Position numbers and translations under genes: made by a program. A DNA stretch of 20,934 bases from a virus. Of this stretch, positions 238-20,934 are shown piece by piece (position 1 is the first letter of the stretch; every line of letters begins with the position of its first letter). The stretch is from positions 1 to 20,934 of IMG/VR virus record IMGVR_UViG_3300010354_000840, one strand, 5' to 3'. The notes beneath the pieces are model-generated. The model saw nothing but the letters and a program-made list of their open reading frames with translations. It was not told where the DNA came from and searched no databases.

Positions 238-261
238 CCATTTAATAAATAGGGGTGGAAA

Positions 262-741: not shown

Positions 742-750
742 CAATCGGCA

Positions 751-2752: not shown

Positions 2753-2753
2753 A

Positions 2754-2978
2754 ATGGGAATTTTTGGCGGAGCACCTAAAACACCTAGCCCTGAAGAATT
2801 AAAAGCGCAAGCTGATGCAGCAGCGCGTAAAGCCCGTGATGAAATGGCTACAGATAAAGCGGGAACAGAGGCAGCTATGGCAAAGCAAATGCAGGAACGA
2901 GAAACTACAGCCAGGCAATTTGCTTCAACCGTTATTGAAGATGAAGATTCTAAAAAGAAATTCTTAAAGGGTATTTAA
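2754..2978 (+). CDS. Small charged helical protein, unknown function
   Basis: 74 aa, starting one base after the GNAT stop, with AGGA 7 nt upstream of the ATG. The N-terminus MGIFGGAPKTPSPEEL is followed by an Ala/Lys/Glu-rich stretch (about 16-60) predicted by eye to be a long amphipathic helix or coiled coil, ending in a charged tail DEDSKKKFLKGI. Small proteins with a 'MG-x-F-G-x-P-x-x-P' beginning just before the connector gene are common in podoviruses, and are plausibly minor virion or assembly proteins. No catalytic motif is visible. It abuts the portal gene: its TAA is immediately followed by the portal GTG. Confidence 0.75.
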   Translation: MGIFGGAPKTPSPEELKAQADAAARKARDEMATDKAGTEAAMAKQMQERETTARQFASTVIEDEDSKKKFLKGI

Positions 2979-4679: not shown

Positions 4680-6133
4680 TGTCAAGAAGCTTAAGTGTAA
4701 CTGATAATTTTCGAGTTTCTTTTTCAGAAGTTATTGCTTCTAGTATAGATACACAGAATTTTAATATTATTGCTACTGGAACTGGCCAGACTGTTTCTCA
4801 AAGTTCTGGCAACCTTGTTTTGGCATCTGGCACGACCGCAAACAGTGAAACAATTCTTAGGTCGCGCAAGGCTTGGAACCAAGATTTGACGGCAAGATTC
4901 CCTATAATTTTATCTCAAAGAATTGCCAACAACAGTTTTGTTTTTGAATTGGTGGACGTAATTGGCGATGACCTTGATTTTACTATAAATTCAGCGACAA
5001 GTGTGACTGTTATACTGCCCGAAAACCATAAATTTACATCTCGCAATGTTGGGCAATCAATTTCTATTGGGGCAATCCGCCCTCAACCATCTGCTATTCC
5101 TGGCCGTTATGCTATTGCATCCGTTGTTGGCAGGGCTATGACTTTAACTGTTGCTAGCTGGCCTGCATCTGGCACGGGTAAATGTAGTTTGTATGGACAC
5201 AATTTTATTCGCAATGTTTTTGATGGGACAACGGCAACATCATTTACATTTGATTGTGCGCGAAATGGTTGGGCGACTGGTTTAACTACTGTCGCAAACG
5301 CAACAGCCACAACTGGAACTGGTATTATTGTTACAAACAATTTGATTGATTCTGTTTTTTCAGTAAGTTACCAAGCCCCAGATTCATCTGCTGCATTGCA
5401 ATTAATTTCTGCGGGTTCTCGCGCTCAAAACGTTCCAGATGAAGATGCAACATTGTTTTTGCAAATTCGTGTAACAAATGGTTCTGTTGCTCCGGCAAGC
5501 ACAACAACTGCCACAATTGCATTTGTTGGCATAGAAGGATTTAACAGCCAAAACATTTCAATTTCTGCTGTTCGACCTCAATCGTTAAATTCGGCATTGC
5601 CAGTAACTTTTGGCAATACTGGACAGCCAATTGTTGGAACTGCGGCAATTGATGCTGTTGCAAGTGGAAACCCTGTTCAAATTGGCACTGTTGTTAGAAA
5701 CGCATTGCCAACAACATACGCCACTGGTGATGCGGCTGCGCCAGTTGCAACATTGGCTGGTGTGCTGGTTAATGCCCCATACACAATTCCTGAAGCGTCA
5801 TGGCAATATGCTGCTGCTGCTGGCGGCATATTAAACACAACAACGGCAGTGACTATCAAAGCAGCTGCTGCGGCTGGTGTTAGAAATTACATCACTGGGA
5901 TTGATGTAATGCACCAGGCATTAACAACTGCAACTGAATTGGCTATTCGTGATGGAGCTGGCGGAACTGTAATTTGGCGTTCATTCTTACCTGCTGGTGC
6001 GGTTGGTAAATTTAGTGTTGAGTTTCCTGTTCCTTTGCGCGGTACTGCTGCCACATTGTTAGAAGTTGTGACATTAACTGCAAGTGGAGCTGGCGCTGTT
6101 TATGTTAATGCCCAAGGATATTCTGCGGTATAA
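4679..6133 (+). CDS. Putative structural protein (head fibre or decoration), 484 aa
   Basis: I do not recognise a named family with certainty. The composition (Ser, Thr, Ala, Val, Gly and Asn rich, very few Cys or charged clusters) is that of a beta-rich virion surface protein. Apparent regions: an N-terminal part (1-110) with VTDNFRVSFSEVIAS and LSQRIANNSFVFELVDVIGD strands; a middle part (about 111-310) with KFTSRNVGQSISIG and IPGRYAIASVVG; and a C-terminal domain (about 330-484) with an Ala-rich stretch, ITGIDVMHQA, LAIRDGAGGTVIWRSFLPA and a terminal VYVNAQGYSAV strand. A compact domain with such repeated strands is seen in phage decoration and fibre-like proteins. Location directly after the portal and the perfect Shine-Dalgarno argue for an abundant virion component. 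Alternatives are a head fibre, a capsid decoration protein, or a neck-associated fibre. Confidence 0.8.
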   Translation: MSRSLSVTDNFRVSFSEVIASSIDTQNFNIIATGTGQTVSQSSGNLVLASGTTANSETILRSRKAWNQDLTARFPIILSQRIANNSFVFELVDVIGDDLDFTINSATSVTVILPENHKFTSRNVGQSISIGAIRPQPSAIPGRYAIASVVGRAMTLTVASWPASGTGKCSLYGHNFIRNVFDGTTATSFTFDCARNGWATGLTTVANATATTGTGIIVTNNLIDSVFSVSYQAPDSSAALQLISAGSRAQNVPDEDATLFLQIRVTNGSVAPASTTTATIAFVGIEGFNSQNISISAVRPQSLNSALPVTFGNTGQPIVGTAAIDAVASGNPVQIGTVVRNALPTTYATGDAAAPVATLAGVLVNAPYTIPEASWQYAAAAGGILNTTTAVTIKAAAAAGVRNYITGIDVMHQALTTATELAIRDGAGGTVIWRSFLPAGAVGKFSVEFPVPLRGTAATLLEVVTLTASGAGAVYVNAQGYSAV

Positions 6134-6155
6134 TTTAATCTGATGGTGGCTATTT

Positions 6156-6503
6156 ATGATTACTTTTTCTAATGAAGATTTTATTCGGGCTTTAAATGTT
6201 GTTGCGGCAACAGAAGAAGGGCGGATTGTATTTGCAATGATTAAAGAACATTGCAATTGGGATAAGGTTTATTTATCAAGCGAAAACCCTACAGTGTCGC
6301 ATTACTATGCTACTATGAGGGGTGTTTACGGTGCAATTCGTGAGCATATCAACAAAGAGCATTTGAAAAACATAGAGTTTAATTATCAACGTAAGGTGGA
6401 GCAAACAAATGACGGAACAAACAGTATCAACAGCAACAGAGCAAAGCCCCTCAGTGACAATGAGCGGATTTACCGAGGGGTCAGTAAGCCAAGAAAGTTC
6501 TAG
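6156..6503 (+). CDS. Bbp19-like small phage protein
   Basis: 115 aa, ATG with GGTGG about 6 nt upstream. Residues about 5-65 follow the pattern of the Bbp19-like phage domain named after Bordetella phage BPP-1: a helix with 'ATEEGRIVFAMI', a small loop, then a 'NPTVSHYYATMRGVYGAIREHI' type segment in which a Thr and a conserved G-R/G-V-x-x-x-I helix recur. In BPP-1-like phages this gene sits between portal and scaffold, exactly as here. Function is unknown, presumably assembly. The last 31 codons overlap the scaffold gene in another frame; that C-terminal part is polar and looks unstructured, so it may be constrained mostly by the other frame. Stop is TAG. Confidence 0.72.
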   Translation: MITFSNEDFIRALNVVAATEEGRIVFAMIKEHCNWDKVYLSSENPTVSHYYATMRGVYGAIREHINKEHLKNIEFNYQRKVEQTNDGTNSINSNRAKPLSDNERIYRGVSKPRKF

Positions 6504-7260
6504 TGCGGATTTTGCCGTACCAGAAGCATATGCTGGCAAGGGGTGGACTGCTGGCATTAAATCGGTTGATGACTTATGGAAAATGACCGACAACGCGCAA
6601 AGTCTTATTGGCAAGCGCACTGTCCCATCTCAAGACGCATCAGATGAGGAGTGGAGCAATTTCTTTCGGCAAATTGGTGCGCCTGAAACGCCCAATTATG
6701 AATTGCCGCCTGTAGATGGTGTGCCAGAAAATTTTGATGTTGAACCGTATGCTAAAAAGGCTAACGAACTTTTTCATAAAGCGGGGCTAACGACCAAGCA
6801 AGCAAATGCACTATGGCAAGCATATGTTAAATCTGAATTAGATTCGTCGGCAGAGATGATGGCGCAATCTGATGTGCAGTTTCAAGAGTTAACAACCAAA
6901 CACTTTGGCGATAAATTTAGTCAAATACAGGGCATTGCCCAAGATGCTATCAAGGCTTTCGTGCCTATGGAATTGCGCGAATCTTTAAAGACTGCAAGCC
7001 CAGAAGTTTTAACGGCTATGATTGCTTTGGCATCAAATGCAAAAGGTGAAATTGACCGAGTAAAACAAGAATACGGTGCAGAAGGAAAGTTACCAAGTGG
7101 CGGTGTTGTTGAATCTCGTAATGCAGAAAGCATAGCAAAAGAAATATCCCAACTTAAGTTTAGTAGTGCTGGGAGGGATTACAGCAATCCTGAATACAAA
7201 GCAACGTGGGAAAAAATTAACGGACTTCAGCAGCAACTATCACGTCTTTCCAAAACGTAA
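6409..7260 (+). CDS. Scaffolding protein
   Basis: 283 aa. The N-terminus is polar and disordered, followed by ADFAVPEAYAGKGW and IKSVDDLWKMTDNAQSLIGK (residues about 34-69), then SQDASDEEWSNFFRQIGAPE (74-93). This order (short 'P-x-x-Y' motif, 'K-S-x-D-D-L-W-K' helix, 'L-I-G-K-R', 'D-A-S-D-E-E-W') is typical of podovirus scaffolding proteins. The C-terminal half is charged helices, with a final helix KINGLQQQLSRLSK suited to binding coat protein. It should form the internal core on which the coat protein assembles and then leave. The start at 6409 has AAGGTGGAG 7-8 nt upstream, which supports the 95-nt overlap with the preceding gene rather than a later start. Confidence 0.88.
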   Translation: MTEQTVSTATEQSPSVTMSGFTEGSVSQESSSADFAVPEAYAGKGWTAGIKSVDDLWKMTDNAQSLIGKRTVPSQDASDEEWSNFFRQIGAPETPNYELPPVDGVPENFDVEPYAKKANELFHKAGLTTKQANALWQAYVKSELDSSAEMMAQSDVQFQELTTKHFGDKFSQIQGIAQDAIKAFVPMELRESLKTASPEVLTAMIALASNAKGEIDRVKQEYGAEGKLPSGGVVESRNAESIAKEISQLKFSSAGRDYSNPEYKATWEKINGLQQQLSRLSKT

Positions 7261-7270
7261 TTTTATTGCG

Positions 7271-7299
7271 TTGACATGATATATTGATTGTTATATATT
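7271..7299 (+). promoter_or_regulatory. Sigma70-type promoter for the major capsid gene
   Basis: TTGACA (7271-7276), a perfect -35 box, is followed after exactly 17 nt by TATATT (7294-7299), a 5/6 match to the -10 box. It lies in the largest intergenic gap of the window (7261-7425), immediately upstream of the capsid gene and a structured leader. Transcription would start near 7306. This would let host RNA polymerase boost capsid transcription above readthrough from upstream genes. Confidence 0.7.
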
Positions 7300-7305
7300 G
7301 CTTTT

Positions 7306-7374
7306 GAAGGGTAGCGGAATCCGTCCTTCTGACAAGCCTAATGGCCAGAGTCGTCCGCCTTATGGTGGGTAGCG
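7306..7374 (+). promoter_or_regulatory. Structured 5' leader of the capsid mRNA (three hairpins, 8-nt repeat)
   Basis: The leader starts at the predicted transcription start. Hairpin 1: GAAGGG (7306-7311) pairs with TCCTTC (7324-7329), continued after a 3-nt bulge by CGG (7315-7317) with CCG (7321-7323) around an AAT loop. Hairpin 2: GCC (7336-7338) with GGC (7343-7345), loop TAAT. Hairpin 3: CCGCC (7355-7359) with GGTGG (7364-7368, one G-U pair), loop TTAT. GGGTAGCG occurs at 7309-7316 and again at 7367-7374. This block is GC-richer than its AT-rich flanks (7261-7305 and 7381-7415). Possible roles are mRNA stabilisation or translational control of the capsid gene; none is shown. Confidence 0.5.
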
Positions 7375-7411
7375 AATCGAATACAAAACTTGTTTTCGTT
7401 TCAAAATCCAC

Positions 7412-7419
7412 AAAAGGAG
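7412..7419 (+). promoter_or_regulatory. Ribosome binding site that sets the capsid gene start
   Basis: AAAAGGAG ends 6 nt before the GTG at 7426. An ATG at 7424 overlaps this GTG (ATGTG) but is in another frame and terminates after five codons at 7441. The site therefore selects GTG 7426 as the capsid start rather than the in-frame TTG at 7390, which has no Shine-Dalgarno. Confidence 0.75.
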
Positions 7420-7425
7420 TTGGAT

Positions 7426-8313
7426 GTGTCACAGCCTTTAATTGACCCCTCACAAATTATTCAGTTCAGTTCTGATGTTCACACTGTTGCCCAGCAACAA
7501 GAACGTCGGTTTAAGCAATATGTTCCTGTCATGCAAATGACTGGCGACAGGTTTGCTTATGACGGTTTAGGCCGTGTTGAAGCCCGAGAAGTTTCTGGTA
7601 CTGTTGTGCCTGTAAGCTTTGATTCTATCACGCACACTCGTCGTCTTATTCGTCGTAAACGATTTGTTGTTACGTTGCCAATTGACGCTTCAAACGTAGC
7701 AGGTGCTTTGTTTGACCCTCAATCAAACTATGCAGCAGAAATTGCCAAAGCAATGAACCGTGCTTATGACCGTGTTGTTGTTGATGCGGCTTTTGCTGAT
7801 GTGCAAACTGGTCGTGACTTTGAAAACACTGTCACTGCAACCAACGATGGTGTAAAAACCGTTACGGCTACAGGCGGCATGATTTATGAGCGCATCCTTG
7901 AAATTCAACAAAACTTCTTTGATTCAGACGTTGGTGTTGATGTTAATGAGCGTGTTTTCATGACCATTACTGGTAAAGAACAAAACCAGTTGATGCAAGA
8001 AATTGAGGTTATCAATAGCGATTACACTCAAAATTATGTTGTTGACCGTGGGCAACTTACTTCGTTTAGCCGCATTGAGTTTATTCCCTTTGCTGCAAAC
8101 GTACCTAGCCCCATTATCCCAGTTTCTGGTGGTCAGCGTGCATTGATTGCGGCTTGTACTGGTGGGATTGTTTTGGGTGTTTCTCGTGACATTCAAATCA
8201 AAATCCAAGAGCGTAGTGATTACTACAGCACCACGCAGGTTGTTGCAGAAATGGAAATTGGCGCAGTTCGTACTGAAGGTGCCAAAGTTCAGCGCGTAAA
8301 CGTAACCGTATAG
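7426..8313 (+). CDS. Major capsid protein
   Basis: 295 aa from GTG 7426, about the size of the coat proteins of BPP-1-type podoviruses. It follows the scaffold and precedes a small decoration-like gene, the canonical coat position. Visible segments: an N-terminal helix HTVAQQQERRFKQYVPVMQ, a strand pair VPVSFDSITHTRRLIRRKRF around residues 59-78, a long spine-type helix with YAAEIAKAMNRAYDRVVVDA (about 104-123), an FENTVTATNDGV loop, and a C-terminal GGIVLGVSRDIQIKIQER followed by DYYSTTQVVAEMEIGAVRTEG, matching the end of HK97-fold coat proteins of this kind, where a basic-acidic strand runs to a final 'GA-V-R' segment. The gene stops with tandem TAG TAA, ensuring tight termination. Family naming is from pattern recognition only. 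Confidence 0.9.
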   Translation: MSQPLIDPSQIIQFSSDVHTVAQQQERRFKQYVPVMQMTGDRFAYDGLGRVEAREVSGTVVPVSFDSITHTRRLIRRKRFVVTLPIDASNVAGALFDPQSNYAAEIAKAMNRAYDRVVVDAAFADVQTGRDFENTVTATNDGVKTVTATGGMIYERILEIQQNFFDSDVGVDVNERVFMTITGKEQNQLMQEIEVINSDYTQNYVVDRGQLTSFSRIEFIPFAANVPSPIIPVSGGQRALIAACTGGIVLGVSRDIQIKIQERSDYYSTTQVVAEMEIGAVRTEGAKVQRVNVTV

Positions 8314-8879: not shown

Positions 8880-9512
8880 ATGGCAACTAGCATAAGTTCG
8901 CCTACCGACATTGGAAATTTGGCTCTTGATTTATTGGCGGCCAACAATGTTCAAGATATAGATTCCCCGACATCAGCAACAGAAATTTTAGTACATAGAT
9001 GGTATTCTGTTGTTCGACAAAAAATACTTCGTGAACATCCTTGGAATTTCGCTACAAAGCGTGCCGTTTTGTCGGCATCTGCTACAGCACCAGCTTTTGG
9101 ATATTCTTCGCAATACCCGTTGCCCAATGATTTTTTGCGTCTAAATTCTATTTCTAACGCAAACAATGATATTATTGCAACAACAGAATATGAAATAGAA
9201 AACGGCAATATTTTGTACAATGGTGACGGCGGTAAATTGTACCTTAAGTATGTTTATGATTTGACCAATGTTGCACAAATGGATGCTTTGTTTGTTGATT
9301 TGTTTGCAATAGATTTGGCATTAAGTTTGTCTTACAAATTTACGGCCAGCAATACAGATATTACCAGGTTAAACGGATTAAGAGAAAAAGCTGCTACACA
9401 AGCGAGGGCAATTGATGGCCAAGAGCGGCCACCACAAGTTCGGCAATACAGCAAAATTTTGGCAGGCAGGTTTAGTTTGTCTAATCAAAACTACTATTAT
9501 CATTTTTCCTGA
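8880..9512 (+). CDS. Tail tube / adaptor protein (T7 gp11-like)
   Basis: 210 aa. This family forms the adaptor ring below the portal in T7-type tails. Diagnostic stretches: IGNLALDLLAAN (11-22), RWYSVVRQKILREHPWNFAT (40-59) with the 'L-x-x-H-P-W-N-F-A' signature, YPLPNDFLRL (79-88), then a helical C-terminal half DLFAIDLALSLSYKFT and a terminal basic-aromatic tail. The start has GGGGG 5 nt upstream, directly after the terminator. Its stop TGA overlaps the ATG of the nozzle gene (TGATG), implying coupled synthesis of the two tail proteins. Confidence 0.9.
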   Translation: MATSISSPTDIGNLALDLLAANNVQDIDSPTSATEILVHRWYSVVRQKILREHPWNFATKRAVLSASATAPAFGYSSQYPLPNDFLRLNSISNANNDIIATTEYEIENGNILYNGDGGKLYLKYVYDLTNVAQMDALFVDLFAIDLALSLSYKFTASNTDITRLNGLREKAATQARAIDGQERPPQVRQYSKILAGRFSLSNQNYYYHFS

Positions 9513-12082
9513 TGGTATCTGTAAACACATCTTACAGTGATTTTTCTGCGGGTGAGATTAGCCCGAAAATATACGGTCGTTTTGATATTCAGATTTTTTA
9601 TAAGTCTGGCCGAAGGGTAAGAAACTTTATACCAGAAACTGTTGGCGGGGCTAAATATCGGACTGGCACATATTTTGCCGCTCAAACTGCTGGCAATTCT
9701 GCGGCTTGTTTAACGACTTTTGTTTATACCGATACTATTGCATTTGGATTAGAATTTACACCGCTGCGGTTAAGATTTTATCGAAATGATTCTCAAGTGC
9801 GGCACGCGGCACAAGCCATTACAGGAATTACCCAAGCCAATCCTGCTGTAGTAACCTATGTTGGGGCGGATACTTTTTCTAACGGTGACTCGGTTTGGAT
9901 TGATAATGTTGTTGGCATGACTGAAGTTAATGGCCAGGAATATGTTGTTGCTGGCGTAAATACTGCGGCCAACACGTTTCAGCTTCAGGGCATAAATAGT
10001 ACAGGATTTAGTGCTTATACAAGCGGTGGGACAGTTGAGAAAATTGTTCAAGTTACAACGCCATACACTGCGAATGATTTGTTTCAGTTAAAATTTGCTC
10101 AAGACAATGACATTTTGTACATTGCCCATCCGCTGTATAACCCTCAAAAATTAACTTATGTTAGCCCTACTAATTGGACTTTGGCTGCTCATTCTCCCAT
10201 AAGAAAAACGCGACAGCCAGGCGTTTTAATAAGCGCGATAAGCCAAGCCAATCCAGCCGTTGTGACTTACACTGGTAGTGATATTTTTGTAAACGGCGAT
10301 GTTGTTTATATTGATAACTGCTCTGGCATGACACAGCTTAACGGCAGAGAATTTACGGTTGCTGGTGTCAATACAGCCGCCAACACGTTTCAATTGTCTG
10401 GTGAAGATTCCAGCGGTTACAATGCTTATTCTGGCGGGGGGCTAGTTCGTCGCATTACATCGGCAGCAGTTCCATTTTTATCTGCCAGTAATTATCCAGC
10501 AGCCGTTGGATTTTATGAACAGCGTTTGGTGTATGCTGGCTCGATTAACAATCCTAATAAAATTTGGTTTTCTGTAACTGGGGAACCAGATGACTTTAGT
10601 TTGCAACAAGGTCTTACGGCACAGCTTGATGACGGTATGGAATATGTTGTTTCTGGCAACGCAACCAAAATTACTTGGCTAAAAGGAACAGAAAAGTTTT
10701 TGGCTGTTGGTGCGTTAAACGATGTTCTTCAAGTGACTGGTGGTATCGACGGTGTAATTACCAGCCAAAGCATTTCAATCAAGCCTTCTAATAGCTTTGG
10801 CGCTTATGATATTATGCCTATTGGCAGAGGCAACCAGATTTTTTATGTACAAAACAACGGCCTTACACTTAGGTCATTTGAGTATAACTTTGAAAAAGAT
10901 AGTTATATCCCAACGGATAGAAATACAATTGCTGACCACATTACCGAAAGCGGCATTAAACAAATAGATTTTCAAGAAGCACGGCCAAACATTGTTTGGG
11001 GCGTTAGAAATGATGGCGCTTTAATTGGAATGACAATTGAAGAACAAGAGGCAGTTTCTGGTTGGCATTACCATGATACAGACGGGCAATTTATTTCTGT
11101 TACATCATTACCGAGGCTAAACAAATATGACCAATTGTGGGTGTGCGTCAAAAGAACTGTAAATGGCGTTGATAAATACTTTGTAGAATTTTTTACGGAC
11201 GAAACAACTTATCCCCGCAGAGAAAATTTTGTTAGCGGCACAGAAACTGATGATAACATAAAATATCAAAACAGTTTGTTTGAAAGCCAAAAACAATACA
11301 TTCACGTTGATTCTGCCATTTCTTATTACGGTGATTCAATTGGGACAACTGCTGGTGCATCTGTAACCCCTGCGGCAACAACGGGTACTGGTGTTGTGTT
11401 TACTGCATCTGCATCAGTGTTCACCGCGTCAATGGTTGGCCGCAAGATAGTGCGTAAAAGCACCACAGGGGCTGAATATGGGGTCGCAGTCATTACGGGG
11501 TACACAAGTGCCACAAGTGTGACTTGCAATATCCTGGAGGCCTTTAATAGCGTTTCTGCTATACCTGCTGGCCAATGGTATTTAACGACCAATCAAATCA
11601 GCGGAGCGGGTCATCTTAATGGAAAATTGGTTACGGTTGTTGGCGACGGCGGGCAATTGCCAGCGGTAACAGTTTCTAACGGTGTTGCTACATTGGCAGA
11701 GCAAGCATCTGTTGTTCACATTGGACTGCCATATGTTGGTTGGCTAGAAACAAATGAGTTAGAGGGTGGTGGTGTAAATGGCACAGCGCAAACCAAACGC
11801 AAAAATGTTTACGGCATTGGCTTTCGATTCCTGGATACACTTTATGCAGAATATGGTGTATCGTATTATGCAATGTCACTTATCGAAATGAGGACAACGG
11901 CTATGCGAATGGACAGACCGCCAGAATTGTTTACGGGCGATACATTTGAGCAATTGCCAACAAAATTAAATGATGTTCGTGATGGTGGATGGTCAAGAAG
12001 TATTAGGGCGATTGTTTGCCAGCGCAATCCGTTTCCTTGTAAAGTTCAGTTAATTGTGCCTTATTTTGCAGTAAGTAATTGA
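9512..12082 (+). CDS. Tail nozzle / tail tubular protein B-like (T7 gp12, P22 gp10 type) with FCCH-like insertions
   Basis: 856 aa, in the size range of T7 gp12 (about 790 aa). The N-terminus FSAGEISPKIYGRFDIQIFY (11-30) and GRRVRNFIPETVGGAKYRTG (33-52) is the classic start of this family. A later GFYEQRLVYAGSINNPNKIW (about 327-346) and GHLNGKLVTVVGDGGQLPAV (about 704-723) also match, the latter being the 'H-L-x-G-x-x-V' strand of these proteins. Two FCCH-like domains (residues 103-178 and 240-315) are inserted in the N-terminal part. The protein should form the distal hexameric nozzle of the short tail through which DNA leaves. It overlaps its neighbours by one base on each side (TGATG). 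Confidence 0.88.
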   Translation: MVSVNTSYSDFSAGEISPKIYGRFDIQIFYKSGRRVRNFIPETVGGAKYRTGTYFAAQTAGNSAACLTTFVYTDTIAFGLEFTPLRLRFYRNDSQVRHAAQAITGITQANPAVVTYVGADTFSNGDSVWIDNVVGMTEVNGQEYVVAGVNTAANTFQLQGINSTGFSAYTSGGTVEKIVQVTTPYTANDLFQLKFAQDNDILYIAHPLYNPQKLTYVSPTNWTLAAHSPIRKTRQPGVLISAISQANPAVVTYTGSDIFVNGDVVYIDNCSGMTQLNGREFTVAGVNTAANTFQLSGEDSSGYNAYSGGGLVRRITSAAVPFLSASNYPAAVGFYEQRLVYAGSINNPNKIWFSVTGEPDDFSLQQGLTAQLDDGMEYVVSGNATKITWLKGTEKFLAVGALNDVLQVTGGIDGVITSQSISIKPSNSFGAYDIMPIGRGNQIFYVQNNGLTLRSFEYNFEKDSYIPTDRNTIADHITESGIKQIDFQEARPNIVWGVRNDGALIGMTIEEQEAVSGWHYHDTDGQFISVTSLPRLNKYDQLWVCVKRTVNGVDKYFVEFFTDETTYPRRENFVSGTETDDNIKYQNSLFESQKQYIHVDSAISYYGDSIGTTAGASVTPAATTGTGVVFTASASVFTASMVGRKIVRKSTTGAEYGVAVITGYTSATSVTCNILEAFNSVSAIPAGQWYLTTNQISGAGHLNGKLVTVVGDGGQLPAVTVSNGVATLAEQASVVHIGLPYVGWLETNELEGGGVNGTAQTKRKNVYGIGFRFLDTLYAEYGVSYYAMSLIEMRTTAMRMDRPPELFTGDTFEQLPTKLNDVRDGGWSRSIRAIVCQRNPFPCKVQLIVPYFAVSN
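9818..10045 (+). repeat. FCCH-like domain repeat, copy 1 (in the nozzle gene)
   Basis: Encodes residues 103-178 of the nozzle protein, starting ITGITQANPAVVTY and ending SAYTSGGTVEKI. It shares the 13-residue block VAGVNTAANTFQL and the NGD-x-V-x-I-D-N and GMT-x-x-NG-x-E segments with copy 2. This resembles the FCCH domain annotated in phage tail proteins and in ubiquitin-activating enzyme E1. Confidence 0.8.
10229..10456 (+). repeat. FCCH-like domain repeat, copy 2 (in the nozzle gene)
   Basis: Encodes residues 240-315, starting ISAISQANPAVVTY and ending NAYSGGGLVRRI. At DNA level the exact shared runs with copy 1 are short (for example GCCAACACGTTTCA), while the protein identity is high, so the duplication is old and kept by selection on the fold. 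Confidence 0.8.
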
Positions 12083-12504
12083 TGTATGAAATTGTGCCAT
12101 TTGAAATAAAACATTTGGAACTTATGGACGTTAGAAGCCATGAGCAGCAATTTACTTCTGATAAAAATTTAATTAACAAAATAATAGACGCATCCGTTGC
12201 ATGGACTGGAATAGCAAATAACAAAATAATTTGTTGCTGGGGCTATATAGTCGGCGAAAGCGGCATTGCAAATCTTTGGCTAATACCTTCAATTTACATG
12301 AAAGATATGCGGTTATCGTTTTTTAGAAAAGTAAAAGAAGTTATTGGACGCACAAGTCAAAACTTTTCTATTATGCAGACCTGTTGCAAAAATGATATAT
12401 TGCATGCACGATGGATGAAATTTCTTGGCTTTAAGCAAATTGGTATTTTAGAAAATTTTTGGGCTGGAAACGATTACGTTTTGTGGGGTAAAAATGGGGC
12501 TTGA
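12082..12504 (+). CDS. T7 gp13-like GNAT-fold protein
   Basis: 140 aa from ATG 12082, which overlaps the nozzle stop (TGATG). The pattern is that of the T7 gp13 family: an N-terminal 'E-I-V-P-F-E-I-K-H' strand, a central CWGYIVGESGIANLWLIPS (residues about 52-70) matching the beta4/beta5 core of the GNAT fold, and a C-terminal HARWMKFLGFKQIG in which 'R-W-x-x-x-L-G-F' is the usual ending. The Q/R-x-x-G-x-G acetyl-CoA loop is not visible, so catalytic activity is doubtful. In T7, gp13 is needed for proper incorporation of core proteins; its place just before the gp14-like gene is conserved here. Ends with an 11-nt overlap into the next gene. Confidence 0.72.
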   Translation: MYEIVPFEIKHLELMDVRSHEQQFTSDKNLINKIIDASVAWTGIANNKIICCWGYIVGESGIANLWLIPSIYMKDMRLSFFRKVKEVIGRTSQNFSIMQTCCKNDILHARWMKFLGFKQIGILENFWAGNDYVLWGKNGA

Positions 12505-13020: not shown

Positions 13021-15288
13021 ATGGTACAAATTCCACAATACACAAGGGGGTTAATTACCAAAGAACGAGCGGTTACGCCTGTTGCCAATCCACAAGCTGT
13101 GCAAAATGCACAAATATCAATTGTTCCCGCTTTACAGTCCATTACAGATTTTGCCGCTGCATATGCAGATAAATTAGAAAAAGCAGATGCGGAAACAAAA
13201 TTAAACGAAGCGCTAATTGCTCAATCAAAATCTACATTTGACATAATAGAGCAAGCTAAAAAAAACTATGAAAACAATCCAAACGAGGCAGTTAGTTTTG
13301 TTCAAGAAGCACTTAATGAAAGCTCTAGCACTCTTGAGTCTGGTTTGCCTTCTATGGCTAGAGATTCGTTTAGATTAAAAGCCGCTGTTTCAAATGAACA
13401 AAGCCGACAATCAATTGTTAATTGGTCACAAAGCCGAAAAGTTGACCAAATTAAAAACACAATGGATACAAATTTTTCATCTTTGGGGGATTATGCCGCA
13501 ACGCTTGGAAAAAATGGTGGCGACCACAAGCAGCTTGTTGAAATGATAAATAATAACTTGGCAAATGCTTATACTATTTTGCCAGAAGATGCTGTTGAAA
13601 AATACAAAATAGAACAAACACAAAGTATTCTTGAATCATATTGGAAGAGTCGGATTGTTTCTGACCCAATTGGTGCGCTAAAACAAATAGATGCTGGTGA
13701 AGCTGGCAACTATGTTGACGCTGGTACAGTAGCTCAATTACGTAAAAATGCTTACAATAGTTTACCAGATATTTTAAAAGTTTTTGGCACGCCAACTGGC
13801 GAAAAACCATCTGTTGGAGATGGCTCTGCCGAATGGAATATTGGCAATGTGTTGCAGCTTGAAGGTGGTTTTAATGCAAATGATGGCGGCTCTGGCTATC
13901 CTGTAATATACGGCATCAACCAAAAATGGTGGCCAGAACAATTTGCTGAGGCCAAAAAAATTACAGATGAAAAAGGCGAATCTGCTGGGAAAATTTATGC
14001 AGAAGAATTTTACCGAAAAGAATATTGGGACAAATACAATTTAGAATCATTGCCACCAGAAACGCGGGGTATTGTGCTTGATGGATTAGTTAATGCCAAT
14101 CATCTTGAACTTATTGATGCAGCAAAAAGTGGTAAGACACCAGAACAGCTTTTGCAAATGCGTAAGGAAAAATACCAGAAAATAGCGCAACAACCTGGCA
14201 TGGGACAGAACCTTAATTCATGGATGAACAGATTAGCATCGCAAGGAATGAACAATGTTGGCGCACAATATCCTGACAAAAGGGCAATGGACAATATTGT
14301 AAACGACCCTGTGCTTGCAATGCAGCAAGCCAACATAGGGCAAAATGTTTCTGATTTAGTAGAGTGGCAAAACAAAAACCTTGGAACGCCAAAAGACATG
14401 GCAAAAGTTTTATCTTCAGTGCAAGCAGAAACTATTTCGCAAAAATTTGGACAGGCAAAAAATGTTGATGAATTTTTGTCACTATCACGAGAGCTTGGGC
14501 AGCAGTACGGCCAATACACAGAAAATGCTGTTAGTCAAATAATACAAACCGCCAAATTGCCCGACACGCAACAAGTGGCTTTAAGATTGGCTGTATCAAA
14601 TGAAGCTAAGTACCGCCGACACATTGAGATGTTGCAAAAAAGCGATATTAAAAGTACGCGCTCATCTTTAGATTCAGGAAAATTAGAAGAAGATGTAGCC
14701 GCCCCATCAAAAGAAGTGGACAATAAGTTAAATAGTTTGATTGCAACAAATGGTGTAACAAACGCATTGTTTAGTGAAGGATTTTCTACTTCAGAAATTG
14801 AAGCTCGAATCAATAGCTACAAAGTTCTTGCATACAGTTACAAACTTGCCAATCCAAATGCGTTCGCAGAAGATGCGGCAAAATTTGCTTTAGAGCCTGT
14901 GTTAGGTGAAAATTCTTATCAAGAATTTAATGGTGGCTTTTACAGAGTGCCAAAAAATTTTATGGATGATGCCGAAACTATAAACAATAATTTGCCAGAC
15001 GTTATCAAAGACACTCTTGAGATGTATGTGCAAAGCGGCCTTTTGGTTAATCCCATTCAGCGTGGAGGCACAGAAATCAATCTTGATGATGTTCGCGTTG
15101 AAATGACAGACGACAAAAAGGGACTGCTGGTCAAATCTGCGGACGACCGTTTATTTATTGTTAATGGCAAGCCTTTGCAAATTGATTATGCCTATTTGTT
15201 AAATCCAATTAAATCAAACTCCCCTAAAGGAGGCACGGTTTACAAAGTTACCACCCCAGCAGCAACTCGCATGATAGAAGGCGAATAA
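13021..15288 (+). CDS. Large internal virion protein with GH108-type muramidase domain
   Basis: 755 aa, close in length to T7 gp15 (747 aa). Helical N-terminal part (about 30-250) contains the 'R-I-V-S-D-P-I-G-A-L-K-Q-I-D-A-G' type segment seen in ejected core proteins. Residues about 272-405 look like a GH108 lysozyme: NVLQLEGGFNANDGGSGYPV (277-296) holds the 'E-G-G-x-x-x-x-D-x-G-G' signature with Glu281 as likely catalytic acid, then IYGINQKWWP, EEFYRKEYWDKYNLESLP and VLDGLVNANH (352-361), a match to the helix that closes the fold. It would cut peptidoglycan locally during DNA entry. The helical C-terminal region (about 410-755) ends in beta segments with 'D-D-R-L-F-I-V-N-G-K-P'. ATG with AGGA about 10 nt upstream. 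Confidence 0.82.
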   Translation: MVQIPQYTRGLITKERAVTPVANPQAVQNAQISIVPALQSITDFAAAYADKLEKADAETKLNEALIAQSKSTFDIIEQAKKNYENNPNEAVSFVQEALNESSSTLESGLPSMARDSFRLKAAVSNEQSRQSIVNWSQSRKVDQIKNTMDTNFSSLGDYAATLGKNGGDHKQLVEMINNNLANAYTILPEDAVEKYKIEQTQSILESYWKSRIVSDPIGALKQIDAGEAGNYVDAGTVAQLRKNAYNSLPDILKVFGTPTGEKPSVGDGSAEWNIGNVLQLEGGFNANDGGSGYPVIYGINQKWWPEQFAEAKKITDEKGESAGKIYAEEFYRKEYWDKYNLESLPPETRGIVLDGLVNANHLELIDAAKSGKTPEQLLQMRKEKYQKIAQQPGMGQNLNSWMNRLASQGMNNVGAQYPDKRAMDNIVNDPVLAMQQANIGQNVSDLVEWQNKNLGTPKDMAKVLSSVQAETISQKFGQAKNVDEFLSLSRELGQQYGQYTENAVSQIIQTAKLPDTQQVALRLAVSNEAKYRRHIEMLQKSDIKSTRSSLDSGKLEEDVAAPSKEVDNKLNSLIATNGVTNALFSEGFSTSEIEARINSYKVLAYSYKLANPNAFAEDAAKFALEPVLGENSYQEFNGGFYRVPKNFMDDAETINNNLPDVIKDTLEMYVQSGLLVNPIQRGGTEINLDDVRVEMTDDKKGLLVKSADDRLFIVNGKPLQIDYAYLLNPIKSNSPKGGTVYKVTTPAATRMIEGE

Positions 15289-15291
15289 CAA

Positions 15292-17694
15292 ATGCTGGAA
15301 AAAAAAGAGCGACAAAGAACGTCATTAAGTGCTTCAGCAGATTTAAGCAATATAGTGCAGCCAACAACACTGAATGTTATTGGTGCATCAGTACAAACAG
15401 CTTTTTTTGGAACAGGAACGCGCTTTGCTGATTTAGAAGCGGCTGCAATTGAGGAAAGAAAAAAAACTGGTACTCCCATGTCAAAAGAAGATTTTGATAA
15501 TGTATATGGGCGGCAATATAAAAATTTAAAATGGACTGAAGGCATGACGCAAGAAGGGGCTGCCATTTTGTCTGCGTATGAAGACCAACAAAGAGATTAC
15601 GATAGCGTATTATCGCGGGCATCAAATTTACAAAGTGCTGCTGCCTTTGTTCCAACTTTTGCGGCCGCCATGATTGAAACTAAAAATGCTGGCATTGAAT
15701 TGGGAGTACAAGCTGGTGTAAGTGCAGCAGCATTTGCCGCATCAAAAGCCAACCCAATTACCGCCGCTTATTTGCCAGTTAAAGCCTTAGCAGCAACACA
15801 CAAGATATTAACTGGTGCAAAAGTATCTGCCAGAACAAAGTTCGCGTACGGGGCTGGATTGGGGGTTGTGAGCGCGGGCATTGCAGAACCAAGCAACATA
15901 TCATCGGCAGAAACATTGCAGCAAGACTATGATTATGTTGACACCCTTATGAACATTGCAAGCAGCAGTATGCTTGGGGGAACTATTGAGGCGGCTCCTA
16001 CTTGGGTGCGGTCATTGCGACAAAAGTTTGGTAGCAAAGCATTTGATGTTCATGCAGCCAAAATGGATACAGCCGCCGCGCAAATGGCCGAGGGGCAACC
16101 GATAGATTTAAGTTATCCTGAAGCTGCTGCAAAAATTTCTATGGCTGATGTGCGTGCGCCAGTTAATGAAAAAATAAATGCAATTCAAAACTTTGTTGCC
16201 GAAAAAACAGGAAAAGATATTTTTCCATCGCAACCAGACTTAAAACAAAATCCTGATATTTTTTTAGAACAAATTGACGGACTTCCTGGCAAAGAATCAC
16301 AAGGTGGGCAAATTGCTACATTGCATCATGGAACAAATATTAATTTTACCAAACTTGACCCAGCAAAAAGCGGCGGAATGGTGTTTTTTGGTGAAGACCA
16401 ATTCATTGCCAAGCGTTATGCAGAAGGAAGTGGCGGCAATCGCGCCAGACTTAGTGACTTAGAAAAATATATTGTTGGGGATAATGGCATTGTTTACGAA
16501 TTAACTGGTGCTAAAACTGTAGAAAAAACAATGACCTTTAAAGGTGAGCGCTTTAACTATGAAGCTCTTGAAGGCGGAGAATGGAGTCCAATTGGACGCG
16601 CAAATCCAAATGAAATTCTTGTTAATAAAAAATCATTACTTCCTCTTGATAGAAAATATTCAAGCCTTAGTATGGATGAAGCCAAAGCTGCAACAAATCC
16701 TGAAACTGGAACAGCAGAACTTATACCAAAATCTTCTAAAATTATTACAAAAGATTTTGAAAATCTTAAATTGCTTGACATTTCTACGCCAGAAGGTCGT
16801 GACGTTATTGCAAAATTAAATCCAACAACTAAAATTGGTCAGACGCTTGTTGATGCAGCAAAATATGATGCTAAATCAATTGACAATAGCACAACACAAT
16901 TAAATAACAATTTTTGGCAATTTACTAAAAGTTCAAAATCTTTTGGCAATCAATTGGCTGAAGATATTGTTGAGCCATTAAAAAAACTTGGATACGACGG
17001 TGTACGGTTTAACGATGACCAACATAAATCTATTGGCCTTTTTGATTCTGGATTAGAAAAAGAAGTCAATGTTAAAAATAAAATAATAACAGATACAAAT
17101 TGGGCTAGGATTGCACGGGATAACAATCTTCCGCCAAATGCAAAAAAACAATTAACTAATCCAAGTGAATATGTTGTTCGCAATAGAGAAACAGGCGAAA
17201 CAATTTTTAAAACTCAAGACAAAACTTTGCTTAGCAATGTTAATAGAGATAAATATGAAACCGTGCCATTGGCAGAACATTTGCTTAATCTTGATGGTAA
17301 GTCATTTGATTTAACAGAGCGTTCATTATTGCAAGCAGAAAAAGTTAGGGCGCTGCACGAACAAACAGCATTTACAGGTTTAAAATCTGGCGATGATGTT
17401 TTGAAAAAAATTGTAAATGACAATAAGGAAATTATAAATTCTGTAGAGCAGTTTGGTGCTAAGAAATTAAGTTTGGAAACGCCAGAGCCAGAACCAGAAT
17501 ATGAAAGCTTTGACGATATTTACAGGCAAGCTCAGCAATTTAAAACAGACCATGATAACATTATGCGAATGATTGAAGCTGGAGAAATTGATACAATAAG
17601 TGCAGCGGCATATAAGGCAGAACTTGCTGGACTTGACCCAGATTCTTTAGACAATGGATTCTTAGAACTTCAAAATTGTTTGTTAGGGATATAA
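15292..17694 (+). CDS. Presumed ejected virion protein with ADP-ribosyltransferase-like (ART-PolyVal type) domain
   Basis: 800 aa. N-terminal half: polar region (1-105), then hydrophobic Ala/Gly-rich helices (about 110-170, 183-198, 215-235) typical of membrane-interacting core proteins. Residues about 340-595 resemble the ART domain of phage polyvalent proteins: LHHGTNINFTKLDP (344-357) with the H-G-T motif, MVFFGEDQFIAKRYAEGSG (363-381) with the 'F-x-x-x-x-x-x-A-x-x-Y-A' motif, GIVYELTG and a long insertion, then LKKLGYDGVRF (563-573) and SIGLFD (580-585). These fit an H-Y-x class of NAD-using transferases. A Glu is not visible in the last motif; D575 and D576 are the nearest acids. The C-terminus is helical and charged. 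It lies between two core-type proteins, so packaging and ejection are inferred, not shown. Confidence 0.68.
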   Translation: MLEKKERQRTSLSASADLSNIVQPTTLNVIGASVQTAFFGTGTRFADLEAAAIEERKKTGTPMSKEDFDNVYGRQYKNLKWTEGMTQEGAAILSAYEDQQRDYDSVLSRASNLQSAAAFVPTFAAAMIETKNAGIELGVQAGVSAAAFAASKANPITAAYLPVKALAATHKILTGAKVSARTKFAYGAGLGVVSAGIAEPSNISSAETLQQDYDYVDTLMNIASSSMLGGTIEAAPTWVRSLRQKFGSKAFDVHAAKMDTAAAQMAEGQPIDLSYPEAAAKISMADVRAPVNEKINAIQNFVAEKTGKDIFPSQPDLKQNPDIFLEQIDGLPGKESQGGQIATLHHGTNINFTKLDPAKSGGMVFFGEDQFIAKRYAEGSGGNRARLSDLEKYIVGDNGIVYELTGAKTVEKTMTFKGERFNYEALEGGEWSPIGRANPNEILVNKKSLLPLDRKYSSLSMDEAKAATNPETGTAELIPKSSKIITKDFENLKLLDISTPEGRDVIAKLNPTTKIGQTLVDAAKYDAKSIDNSTTQLNNNFWQFTKSSKSFGNQLAEDIVEPLKKLGYDGVRFNDDQHKSIGLFDSGLEKEVNVKNKIITDTNWARIARDNNLPPNAKKQLTNPSEYVVRNRETGETIFKTQDKTLLSNVNRDKYETVPLAEHLLNLDGKSFDLTERSLLQAEKVRALHEQTAFTGLKSGDDVLKKIVNDNKEIINSVEQFGAKKLSLETPEPEPEYESFDDIYRQAQQFKTDHDNIMRMIEAGEIDTISAAAYKAELAGLDPDSLDNGFLELQNCLLGI

Positions 17695-20099
17695 TGGCAG
17701 ATTGTTACAAAAGATTTCTTAAAGGTGCAAAAGGTGCTGGAGGGGAAGATGCTGCAAAAAAAATGGAAGATACCATCCGCAAAAATGCGGAAGAGCGAGC
17801 TGCCAACGGTGAAAATTATATTGACGCATTAAATGCAGAAATTAAAGCGCACAAAGATGAATTGACCAAAAGGCAATACACACTAACGCAAAATTTCTTA
17901 AAGTATCAAATGCTTACCTCCGATGTAAAAACACGCATTGAAGGTGGAATGTCAATTAGAGATGCGCTGTTTTCAAGCATAGAAACGCCCAGCGGCACAA
18001 CCGTTCAAGGTGGCATGGCCTCACTTGAAGTAAATATCAATGCACTAGATGCGCGGTATTTTGGTAAATTAACTGGCGGCCTTGCAAGCAAAAACAATAA
18101 ACTTATTAAAATGTTTCAATCATCAGAATTGGACGAACCAATTCAGCGAGCATTGTGGGATTTATCAAGCGGGAAAAAACCGAATGAAATTGAAAATACA
18201 GATATTAGACAGATTGCTACTGCAATTTATGGTGTTCAAGAAGAATTAAGGTTGCGTGCCAACAAATCGGGGGCAAACATATCAAGCGTTCCTGGCGGTG
18301 TATTAGCTCAAAATCACAGTTTAGACAAAATGGCTACAGCAGGAAAAGAAGCTTGGGTTAATGATGTGTTGCCTTTGCTCAATTCAAAAACTTCTTTTAA
18401 TGGAAAATTTAAGAATAATTCTGCTGGATTAAAAAAAGCATTAGAGTCTGCCTATGACGCCATGGTTACTGGCGTTCGCTATCAATCGCGGCTGCAATAT
18501 ACAGATGAAAAATTCTTTGATTTTTTTGGCAGTCAAAACCTTGCCCGCAGGTTATCGCAAAAACGTGAGTTGCATTTTAAGAATTATGATAGCTGGAAAA
18601 AATGGCATGAAAATTATGGTGAAGGTTTTTTAGGCGAACAGACAATTAAAGATATTCAGAGCATGACACACAACATTGCCATGCTTGAAAAATTTGGAAC
18701 CAATCCTGAAGTGGCTTGGAAAAACGCGGTGCAAAATATACTGGAAGCTAACCGTGATAAGCTATCTGCTGAAGCGCAAAAAGCGGGAAAATCCAATAAA
18801 GAATATTTAGATTCTATAAAAAACAAATCTCAAGAAATAATGGATTTTGCATCTGGCAAAAATCAGATTGCTGTTAATCCAACAATAGCACAATTTGCTG
18901 GAACAACACGTTCTATTGTTGCAATGGCTTCTCTTGGGAAAATGCTGCTTTCTGTAATTTCAGATATACCGCTTAAAGCATCTGAATATAAATACCAAGG
19001 CAGAACATTTCTTGGGGGTATTGCCAAAAGCTTTACTGATATTATTGGGCAAACTGGCGTTTCTTATGCAGAAGCCACCAAAACCGCATCATTGCTAGGC
19101 GTGTACATGGACGCCTTTACAGGTGGAACCAATAGATTTTGGGATGACAAATTAACCAAAACAAGCCGAGTGTTTTTTGATATAATTGGCAACACATGGT
19201 GGACGGGCAGGCACAAATTAGCAATGACCATGACGCTGTCACACGATTTGGCACTGAAAAAAAACATAAGTTTTAATGACTTAGATGAAGAAACTTTACG
19301 TTCGTTTACGACTTACGGAATTACAGAAAATGACTGGAATAAATTAAGGCAGGCCGTATCAAAAATTGAAGGAAACAATAAGGAATTTATTGTAACAGAT
19401 TTGATTAAAGATGACGCTGTTGCTGAAAAATATATTGGTTGGATTGTTAGCCGACAAAGTTTTGGAGTTGTTGAGGGAGGGTTTAAGCAACAACGACAAT
19501 TAAGTCTTGGAACAAAACGCGGAACCGCATCTGGTGAACTGATAAGAATGCTTACTCAATTTAAAAGTTTTAGCTATTCTATGCTTACCAAAGTTTATGG
19601 CCGCGAAATATATGGAAAGCAGAAGATAGAACCTATGACCATAACACAATTGTTTTTGGCAACCGTTGCCTTTGGTTATTTGGCTGAAGTGTCGTCAGAT
19701 TTATTAAATGGAAAAACACCAAAACAACCTGATAAATTAGAAACGTGGCACAAAGCCGTTGCGCGCGGTGGCGGATTAGGATTGATTGGCGATTTTGTTT
19801 TGCCAGAATACGGCGGAACAAGAAAAATAATTGGCGCGGCTGCCGGGCCAGTATTAACCAAAGCAGGTGATATAACTGAAATGGCCACTGGTTTAGTCAC
19901 AAGGGGCAAGCTGCCGTCGTCTAAAAAAGCGTTTGATGTAGCTCTATCTACAATTCCTTTTAACAATGTTATTTGGACTAGACCTGTTTTAGACCAATTG
20001 CTTGTAAACGATATTCGCAAGCTTTTAGACCCAGCGGGTTATGCGCGTCAACAGCGCGAACAAATGAAAATGTACGGGCAGAGAAACATTGACTTTTAA
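17694..20099 (+). CDS. Large internal virion / ejection protein, 801 aa
   Basis: The start is the ATG at 17694 overlapping the previous TAA, with TTAGGGAT just upstream; an in-frame TTG at 17676 is less likely. The N-terminus (1-75) is helical and charged and the middle (about 110-390) helical. Hydrophobic segments occur around 405-425 (VAMASLGKMLLSVISDIPL), 650-668 (ITQLFLATVAFGYLAEVSS) and 690-725, Gly-rich. The motif LIRMLTQFKSFSYSML (616-631) closely resembles the 'Q-F-K-S-F' helix of the C-terminal part of large podovirus core proteins, which may play the T7 gp16 role of crossing the inner membrane and translocating DNA. Unlike T7 gp16 it is short and has no N-terminal lytic transglycosylase; the muramidase is in another protein here. 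Confidence 0.8.
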   Translation: MADCYKRFLKGAKGAGGEDAAKKMEDTIRKNAEERAANGENYIDALNAEIKAHKDELTKRQYTLTQNFLKYQMLTSDVKTRIEGGMSIRDALFSSIETPSGTTVQGGMASLEVNINALDARYFGKLTGGLASKNNKLIKMFQSSELDEPIQRALWDLSSGKKPNEIENTDIRQIATAIYGVQEELRLRANKSGANISSVPGGVLAQNHSLDKMATAGKEAWVNDVLPLLNSKTSFNGKFKNNSAGLKKALESAYDAMVTGVRYQSRLQYTDEKFFDFFGSQNLARRLSQKRELHFKNYDSWKKWHENYGEGFLGEQTIKDIQSMTHNIAMLEKFGTNPEVAWKNAVQNILEANRDKLSAEAQKAGKSNKEYLDSIKNKSQEIMDFASGKNQIAVNPTIAQFAGTTRSIVAMASLGKMLLSVISDIPLKASEYKYQGRTFLGGIAKSFTDIIGQTGVSYAEATKTASLLGVYMDAFTGGTNRFWDDKLTKTSRVFFDIIGNTWWTGRHKLAMTMTLSHDLALKKNISFNDLDEETLRSFTTYGITENDWNKLRQAVSKIEGNNKEFIVTDLIKDDAVAEKYIGWIVSRQSFGVVEGGFKQQRQLSLGTKRGTASGELIRMLTQFKSFSYSMLTKVYGREIYGKQKIEPMTITQLFLATVAFGYLAEVSSDLLNGKTPKQPDKLETWHKAVARGGGLGLIGDFVLPEYGGTRKIIGAAAGPVLTKAGDITEMATGLVTRGKLPSSKKAFDVALSTIPFNNVIWTRPVLDQLLVNDIRKLLDPAGYARQQREQMKMYGQRNIDF

Positions 20100-20137
20100 C
20101 AACTTTTCTAACGGCTTAATTTAAGGTATAAGTAATC

Positions 20138-20934
20138 ATGACTATTGCATTGCAGCCAATTAAATTTAGATACCAAGGCAACGGGGCTACTGCCAGCTTT
20201 TCGTTTGCGAATAAAATTTATGACGAAACAGATTTAATTGTAGAAATTTTAGACAGGACTACATCTGTATTAACCGAAACGCTTACATATGTAACGCACT
20301 ACAGTGTAAGTATTGCCGCCAATGGTTATGCGACTGTTACAATTACTAATCCTGCAAAAATACCAAGCAATACTCAAGATATTTTATTACGAGCTTCATT
20401 TCCATTTACACAAACGGCTGAATTTAATTCAGGAACAGTATTGCCCGCCGAAACTATTGAGAACATGGGCGACAAACTTACATCTATTGTTCAGCAGCTT
20501 GATGAAAGCGTTGGCCGTTCCTTAAAGTACAATGCTCAAAGCCCTGTAACCAATCCAACTATCGCTAATCCCGTTGCTGATGCAACCCTGGCATTTGACG
20601 GAACAACTGGTGCATTAAAAGCTGGGGCAACATTGGGCGATATTTCCAATGCGGCGGCCAATGCAACGTCGGCTGCTGTTTCTGCTGCCACGGCCTCGGC
20701 TGCATCTGCTGCGGCACAAGCAGCTAATGGTGGTATTGGTCGGGTAGTCCGCTTGGCAACCAGTGGCAACGTTACCTTGTCGGGATTGCAAACGATTGAT
20801 GGTGTTGTCGGCGCGGAGGGCGATAGGATTCTGGTGCGTACAAACACCACATCTTCGCAAAACGGCATATATCTCATGGCCAGTGGTGCATGGACAAGGG
20901 CAACAGATGCGAACACCTGGTCATCTTTTGTTGG
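20138..20934 (+). CDS. Tail fibre / tailspike, N-terminal part (3' end outside window)
   Basis: At least 265 residues. The N-terminal module (1-130) is a common virion-anchoring domain: NGATASFSFANKIYDETDLIV, then a 'T-E-T-L-T-Y-V-T-H-Y-S-V' strand, LLRASFPFTQTAEFNSG and DKLTSIVQQLDESVGRSL (112-129). This is the pattern seen in T7-like and tailspike N-termini. A proline/threonine-rich linker, an Ala/Ser-rich coiled-coil (about 170-197) and a domain beginning RVVRLATSGNVTLSGLQTID (202-221) with NGIYLMASGAWTRATDA (242-258) follow; this last unit recurs in fibres and spikes. Receptor-binding parts lie beyond the window. ATG 20138 has only a weak, distant AAGG (spacing about 12). A 38-nt gap separates it from the previous gene. 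Confidence 0.85.
   Translation, partial: MTIALQPIKFRYQGNGATASFSFANKIYDETDLIVEILDRTTSVLTETLTYVTHYSVSIAANGYATVTITNPAKIPSNTQDILLRASFPFTQTAEFNSGTVLPAETIENMGDKLTSIVQQLDESVGRSLKYNAQSPVTNPTIANPVADATLAFDGTTGALKAGATLGDISNAAANATSAAVSAATASAASAAAQAANGGIGRVVRLATSGNVTLSGLQTIDGVVGAEGDRILVRTNTTSSQNGIYLMASGAWTRATDANTWSSFV

What the first reader, a model, noticed from the sequence alone, without database searches (positions are those of the whole stretch)
16312..17076. ADP-ribosyltransferase-like domain inside a presumed ejected core protein
Seen: HGT (346-348), a FFGEDQFIAKRYA segment (365-377), and YDGVRF (568-573), in order and with spacing like ART domains of polyvalent phage proteins, in an 800-aa gene sitting between a muramidase-bearing and a gp16-like core protein. 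Known: T4 packages and injects the ART enzyme Alt, and T7-type core proteins leave the virion with DNA. Inference: this podovirus may deliver an ART into the host at entry, acting before any phage gene is expressed. Caveat: no Glu is obvious in the third motif, so the domain may be inactive or use D575/D576.
Basis: partly seen in the sequence, partly recalled or inferred. Interest (0 to 1): 0.72.

Follow-up and report, generated by a model that had tools for sequence, protein, structure and literature searches.

The report
ADP-ribosyltransferase cassette in phage ejection protein
A protein that this short-tailed virus of bacteria probably shoots into its host along with its DNA carries a swappable insert related to ADP-ribosyltransferases, enzymes that chemically tag proteins, so the virus may start re-tuning or disarming the cell before any of its genes are read; activity and delivery are not yet shown.

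Summary
ART homology is supported by sequence: Pfam ART-PolyVal E 2.8e-5 (below cut-off, first two motifs only); profile-profile E 3.4e-6 over the same part; an HMM of the window's own subfamily independently finds the canonical ART of Vibrio phage 1.182.O (E 1.2e-6). Fold evidence is weak (low-confidence models, no significant match). The subfamily is divergent: about 100 aa longer between motifs 2 and 3, and no acid on the last strand. Its conserved DDQ loop lines up with the catalytic D115 loop of AcrIF11, so H346-F366-Y376-D575 is the likely active site (inferred). The host protein is the epsilon15/phiV10-type ejection protein before the phrog_684 virion protein. Of 86 complete orthologues (median 579 aa, max 622) none has an ART. 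A sibling phage (92-96% DNA identity) carries another cassette, joined at base 17314; Vibrio 1.182.O has a canonical ART and one IMG/VR phage an LPD3 domain at the same place. A 61%-identical copy of the ART sits in a giant polyvalent protein. Best reading: a swappable early-effector slot, filled here by a divergent, probably active ART. Ejection and activity are inferred.

The parts
15292..17694 (+). 800-aa ejection protein (epsilon15 gp16 / phiV10p19-like, phrog_3003 backbone) carrying the cassette
15532..16131 (+). conserved N-terminal backbone (about residues 81-280), shared with ART-less orthologues
   Evidence: phrog_3003 E 1.9e-5; column occupancy 0.91-0.98 except residues 121-160 (0.41)
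16312..17076 (+). ART-like domain (residues 341-595), divergent subfamily
16327..16335 (+). motif 1, HGT (H346)
   Evidence: invariant in the subfamily; H invariant in the canonical set
16384..16422 (+). motif 2, FFGEDQFIAKRYA (F366, Y376)
16990..17046 (+). motif 3, GYDGVRFNDDQHKSIGLFD (D569, D575, D576, S580)
   Evidence: conserved in six members; aligns to the AcrIF11 D115 loop
17170..17298 (+). short module (residues 627-669) shared with the F116/phiC725A giant virion protein
   Evidence: phrog_25603 E 2.2e-6; tblastn 43% identity, E 9e-4
17314..17694 (+). C-terminal backbone (residues 675-800); 3' edge of the cassette at 17314; near-invariant Cys796
   Evidence: identity to sibling phage starts abruptly at 17314
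13021..15288 (+). upstream ejection protein with GH108 muramidase domain
   Evidence: PF05838 E 5e-9
17694..20099 (+). downstream virion structural protein (phrog_684; epsilon15 gp17-like), ATG overlapping the stop of the 800-aa gene
   Evidence: phrog_684 E 1.3e-125; 107 phage records; junction TAATG

Best explanation
The 800-aa protein is an epsilon15/phiV10-type DNA-ejection protein. Into it a divergent ADP-ribosyltransferase domain has been inserted, between the conserved N-terminal backbone and the conserved C-terminal tail. The protein is packaged in the head, leaves with the DNA and carries the ART into the host cytoplasm, where NAD+ is available and where it modifies a host protein before phage transcription. 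Likely NAD site: H346, F366, Y376 with D575 (or D576) as the acidic residue, as in AcrIF11 (H-F-H-D). The insertion site is a slot that different phages fill with different early-effector domains. Shown by sequence: homology to ART-PolyVal, location of the insert, cassette difference between sibling phages, same-site effector-type domains in two other phages, purifying selection on relatives of the domain. Inferred: packaging, delivery, catalysis, target.
For: PF18760 E 2.8e-5; hhalign E 3.4e-6; subfamily HMM finds the Vibrio phage 1.182.O ART at E 1.2e-6. That orthologue has a phrog_3003 N-terminus plus ART-PolyVal at 64 bits, over the cut-off, in the same slot. An LPD3 domain sits at the same place in L137 (E 1.5e-23). 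0 of 86 complete orthologues have an ART; 800 aa against median 579, max 622. Sibling phage G002 is collinear at 91-96% with window 1-8066 and 17314-20931 but has unrelated sequence just 5' of 17314. The insert lies in the G+C minimum of the window (0.342). The domain recurs at 54-61% identity in giant proteins of five other phage contigs, one with a GNAT, a second ART and LPD38. dN/dS about 0.05-0.08 among four of those. AcrIF11 (6kyf) is the top-ranked PDB fold match of the better model, though not significant (E 0.5), and its D115 loop aligns with D575/D576 (PMC12421852).
Against: The Pfam match is below cut-off and covers only motifs 1-2. Structure models are poor (pLDDT 57 and 64) and no fold match has E below 0.001. 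The last-strand catalytic column holds Ser, not D/E. The AcrIF11 alignment covers only 12-17 residues (hhalign probability 3.9%). In the second model canonical ART sequences were part of the alignment, which favours an ART-like result. No virion proteomics, no enzyme data, no known target. The purifying selection was measured in giant-protein relatives, not in the podophage itself.
Confidence: 0.66

Rival explanations
1. Degenerate ART: the domain keeps the fold but has lost catalysis and serves as a binding or structural module of the ejection complex.
For: The strand position of the catalytic acid is Ser in the window and in the relatives; canonical members also include V, S and H at this column.
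Against: H346, Y376, GYDG and DDQH are invariant in six members that differ by about 40%, dN/dS is about 0.05-0.08 among four of them, and AcrIF11 uses a loop Asp in the matching place.
Confidence: 0.2
2. The protein stays in the head or in the envelope channel and the insert acts there, or is a neutral passenger of module exchange without function in entry.
For: Giant virion proteins exchange such modules freely (PMC5512222); no evidence here places the protein in the cytoplasm; no strongly hydrophobic segment was found in the window protein.
Against: Different cassettes occupy the same site in related phages, which suggests selection for an effector; NAD+ is cytoplasmic.
Confidence: 0.09
3. 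Not an ART: the H-G-T and GYDG motifs are a coincidence in an unrelated fold.
For: Poor structure models and no significant fold match.
Against: Three sequence-profile comparisons with E between 1e-4 and 1e-6; a 61% identical copy lies in a polyvalent-type protein.
Confidence: 0.05

Closest known systems
ART-PolyVal (PF18760) domains of phage polyvalent proteins (Tox-ART-HYD2 / N4-ART group, Iyer et al. 2017, PMC5512222)
   Same: HGT motif, strand-2 motif and GYDG motif in order; large virion proteins predicted to be injected
   Different: about 100-aa expansion between motifs 2 and 3; Ser at the last-strand acid position; host protein is an 800-aa ejection protein, not a giant polyvalent protein; scores below the family cut-off
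AcrIF11 (6KYF, PMC12421852)
   Same: GYxxVxxxD[DE] third motif with a loop Asp as catalytic residue; Phe at the strand-2 position (H-F-H-D in AcrIF11, H-F-Y-D proposed here)
   Different: AcrIF11 is a small free anti-CRISPR protein made after infection; overall sequence similarity is not detectable outside the motif
T4 Alt
   Same: works-like model: ART packaged in the head and injected with DNA to modify host proteins
   Different: Alt belongs to the R-S-E clade (PMC5512222), is a separate protein, and the phage has a contractile tail
Epsilon15 gp16 / phiV10p19 / phrog_3003 ejection proteins
   Same: N-terminal backbone, C-terminal tail with Cys, gene order between the muramidase or lysozyme protein and the phrog_684 protein
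   Different: surveyed members lack the insert and are about 580 aa
Vibrio phage 1.182.O NVP1182O_16
   Same: same gene, ART domain at the same position
   Different: canonical, shorter ART with Gln at the last-strand position

Membership tests
ART-PolyVal PF18760 | Pfam score over the curated cut-off | tested here: not met
   22.7/25.3 bits vs 31.2
ART-PolyVal PF18760 | motif 1 H-G-T and strand-2 motif with following Tyr | tested here: met
   H346, F365-F366, Y376
ART-PolyVal PF18760 | GYDG motif before the last strands | tested here: met
   G567-G570
ART-PolyVal PF18760 | acidic residue of the H-Y-D active site (PMC5512222) | tested here: inconclusive
   Ser at the strand column by one register, Lys by another; D569, D575, D576 conserved nearby
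ART superfamily | ART fold in a model or structure | tested here: inconclusive
   pLDDT 57/64; best PDB match AcrIF11 E 0.5; four ART-PolyVal-named proteins among the 50 best BFVD matches, none significant
ART superfamily | NAD+-dependent transfer activity | not testable with these tools
   needs biochemistry
phrog_3003 / epsilon15 gp16-like ejection proteins | backbone similarity and gene order before phrog_684 | tested here: met
phrog_3003 / epsilon15 gp16-like ejection proteins | packaged in the virion and ejected with DNA | not testable with these tools
   inferred from gene order; epsilon15 ejects internal proteins (PMC8954989)
polyvalent proteins | two or more unrelated effector domains in one injected polypeptide | tested here: inconclusive
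   one ART-like domain plus a 43-aa phrog_25603 module of unknown function

The most novel reading that the evidence does not exclude
Epsilon15-type podophages carry an effector slot in one ejection protein: a fixed delivery backbone with a swappable insert (divergent ART, canonical ART, LPD3, an unidentified cassette), so that closely related phages differ in the enzyme that acts on the host before gene expression.
Probability: 0.5. Interest if true: 0.7.

Novelty: new variant of a known kind. Interest (0 to 1): 0.55.

Why it matters
Virion-borne ARTs are known from T4 Alt and from giant polyvalent proteins. A swappable effector insert in a compact podophage ejection protein would give a small, tractable system in which backbone and cargo can be told apart, and would make it testable how ejected proteins reach the cytoplasm and what they do there before phage genes are expressed. 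The link to AcrIF11-type catalysis suggests that some virion ARTs could act against host defences from the first moment.

Tried and rejected
A genome-contig scan for the ART subfamily found nothing; plasmids gave no match. PDB searches by sequence with the protein and with the subfamily profile found nothing. The first structure model was too poor to search. The sibling cassette (L003, residues 1-153) shows a GYRGYEHLGG...HNVRIYWFP stretch that looks ART-like by eye, but Pfam, PHROGs, NCBIfam, hhalign against ART-PolyVal and tblastn do not support it, so it is called unidentified. PADLOC and Rfam: nothing. Weak Pfam matches such as PAD in Greip gp6 (E 0.024) were disregarded. Papers on internal virion or ejection proteins with ARTs: none in the held library was seen to describe this case (titles, abstracts and term counts only). 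One search was a mistaken call; one search was a submission in the wrong format.

Full report
WHAT IS THERE. The window is a 20,934-base IMG/VR phage fragment. ORF 15292-17694 (800 aa) holds the three motifs exactly at the stated residues. It lies in a late operon: terminase, portal (Head-tail_con E 1.2e-61), capsid (PF19821), tail proteins, a protein with a GH108 muramidase domain, the 800-aa protein and a phrog_684 virion protein. The stop of the 800-aa gene overlaps the ATG of the next gene (TAATG at 17692-17696).

IS IT AN ART. PF18760 (ART-PolyVal) matches residues 339-383 with E 1.8e-4, or 2.8e-5 for the domain alone, below the curated cut-off. Five relatives of the domain (54-61% identity) were found in other viral contigs, all inside giant ORFs; one of these proteins (3546 aa) also has a canonical ART-PolyVal, a GNAT and LPD38, which marks it as a polyvalent protein in the sense of PMC5512222. 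The subfamily alignment (A3, six sequences) keeps HGT, GGM[VI]FFGED, RYA, GYDG, DDQH and GLFD. Twelve canonical ART-PolyVal domains were collected from phages and viral contigs (A5). Profile-profile comparison of A3 with A5 gives E 3.4e-6 over the first two motifs, and an HMM of A3 finds the Vibrio phage 1.182.O ART with E 1.2e-6 although that sequence was not used to build it. Structure prediction was weak (pLDDT 57 and 64). The better model has AcrIF11 (6kyf, an ART) as the first PDB match, and MbcT (an NAD+-consuming toxin with an ART-like fold, from my own knowledge) at ranks 7-8, but with E of 0.5 and 1.5 (identity of 6kyf); among the 50 best BFVD matches four are named ART-PolyVal, none significant. 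Canonical ART sequences were in the alignment of that model, so this is supportive only.

ACTIVE SITE. In the canonical set the column of the last catalytic acid holds D, E, Q and, in some, V, S or H; a weak alignment of the canonical profile with PARP4 places a DDE stretch, which I take to hold the PARP Glu, at this column. The window has Ser580 there (Lys579 by the MAFFT register). Three to five residues upstream lies DDQ, invariant in the subfamily. AcrIF11 has GYTSVEMEDEHG with D115 required for activity and a H-F-H-D site (PMC12421852). The window's GYDGVRFNDDQH aligns without gaps so that D575/D576 face D115/E116: hhalign E 0.011 but probability only 3.9%, and a motif score reached by 0.18% of shuffles. 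The proposed site is H346-F366-Y376-D575. This is inference from a short stretch.

THE SLOT. The backbone is phrog_3003, the epsilon15 gp16 / phiV10p19-like protein. In Pseudomonas phage Flu_PA14_4 and Stenotrophomonas phage BUCT708 it has no ART. Vibrio phage 1.182.O has ART-PolyVal at 310-462 of 566 aa with 64 bits. A survey of phrog_684 loci in genomes and viral contigs gave 86 complete upstream orthologues: median 579 aa, maximum 622, none with an ART by two HMMs (one of the 86, L064, looks like a wrong ORF). A Pfam scan of 36 representatives found ART-PolyVal in two (window and 1.182.O) and LPD3 in one, L137, at 300-406 of 559 aa. So ART occupancy is rare, and effector-type domains recur right after the conserved N-terminal part. 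Residues about 161-280 are present in nearly all orthologues, those of the ART mostly not (the residual occupancy inside the insert reflects forced alignment of other middle sequence).

CASSETTE EXCHANGE. Contig G002 (IMGVR 3300045999_005817) is a sibling phage, circularly permuted: 91-93% identical over window 1-8066, with interruptions near 2790 and at 5239-5453, and 96% over 17314-20931. Its version of the 800-aa protein is identical at 98-99% from residue 674/675 on and unrelated before it. The contig begins inside its cassette, so the left junction could not be read. The insert of the window (16312-17313) lies in the G+C minimum of the window, 0.342 against 0.418 overall. This fits recent exchange.

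SELECTION. Among four giant-protein relatives, dN/dS of the ART is about 0.05-0.08; against the window, synonymous sites are saturated.

MECHANISM. Likely: packaged with the other ejection proteins, ejected at adsorption, cargo reaching the cytoplasm, NAD+-dependent modification of a host protein. Precedents: epsilon15 ejects internal proteins (PMC8954989) and T4 Alt is injected (PMC5512222, PMC9503650). None of these steps is shown for this phage. The target is unknown; RNA polymerase (as for Alt) or a defence complex (as for AcrIF11) are the obvious candidates.

NOVELTY. Virion-borne ARTs and their spread as modules are known. New here: a divergent ART subfamily with an AcrIF11-like third motif, and a swappable effector site in a compact podophage ejection protein, with different cassettes in sibling phages. 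No paper in the held library was seen to describe it. I rate it a new variant of a known kind.

Noticed in passing
window 17677-17679 (C796): A cysteine 3-8 residues from the C-terminus is kept in 35 of 36 phrog_3003-type ejection proteins aligned (the exception is probably a wrong ORF), although the rest of the tail varies; also by eye in phiV10, Greip, HTVC203P, K227 and Shamal. No explanation.
   Followed up: partly
L003 2-460: Sibling phage cassette of at least 153 aa with no database relative found; its end (GYRGYEHLGG...HNVRIYWFP) looks ART-like by eye but is unsupported.
   Followed up: partly
window 17170-17298: A 43-aa module shared with the giant virion protein of F116-like Pseudomonas phages (phrog_25603, function unknown) lies between the ART and the C-terminal backbone.
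   Followed up: partly
L137 4168-5844: Orthologous ejection protein with an LPD3 domain at the slot position.
   Followed up: partly
window 2264-2752: GNAT acetyltransferase gene (E 3.3e-10) overlapping the end of the terminase gene, between terminase and portal.
   Followed up: no
window 12079-12504: Small gene matching phrog_308 internal virion protein and phrog_4177, at the position where Vibrio phage 1.182.O has an annotated acyl-CoA N-acyltransferase.
   Followed up: no
window 9512-12082: Tail protein with two copies of an E1_FCCH-like repeat (63.5 bits) in its N-terminal half.
   Followed up: no
L048 3130-13767 (minus strand): Giant 3546-aa protein with two different ARTs (one of the window's subfamily, one canonical), a GNAT and LPD38; by eye also an L,D-transpeptidase-like stretch.
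   Followed up: partly
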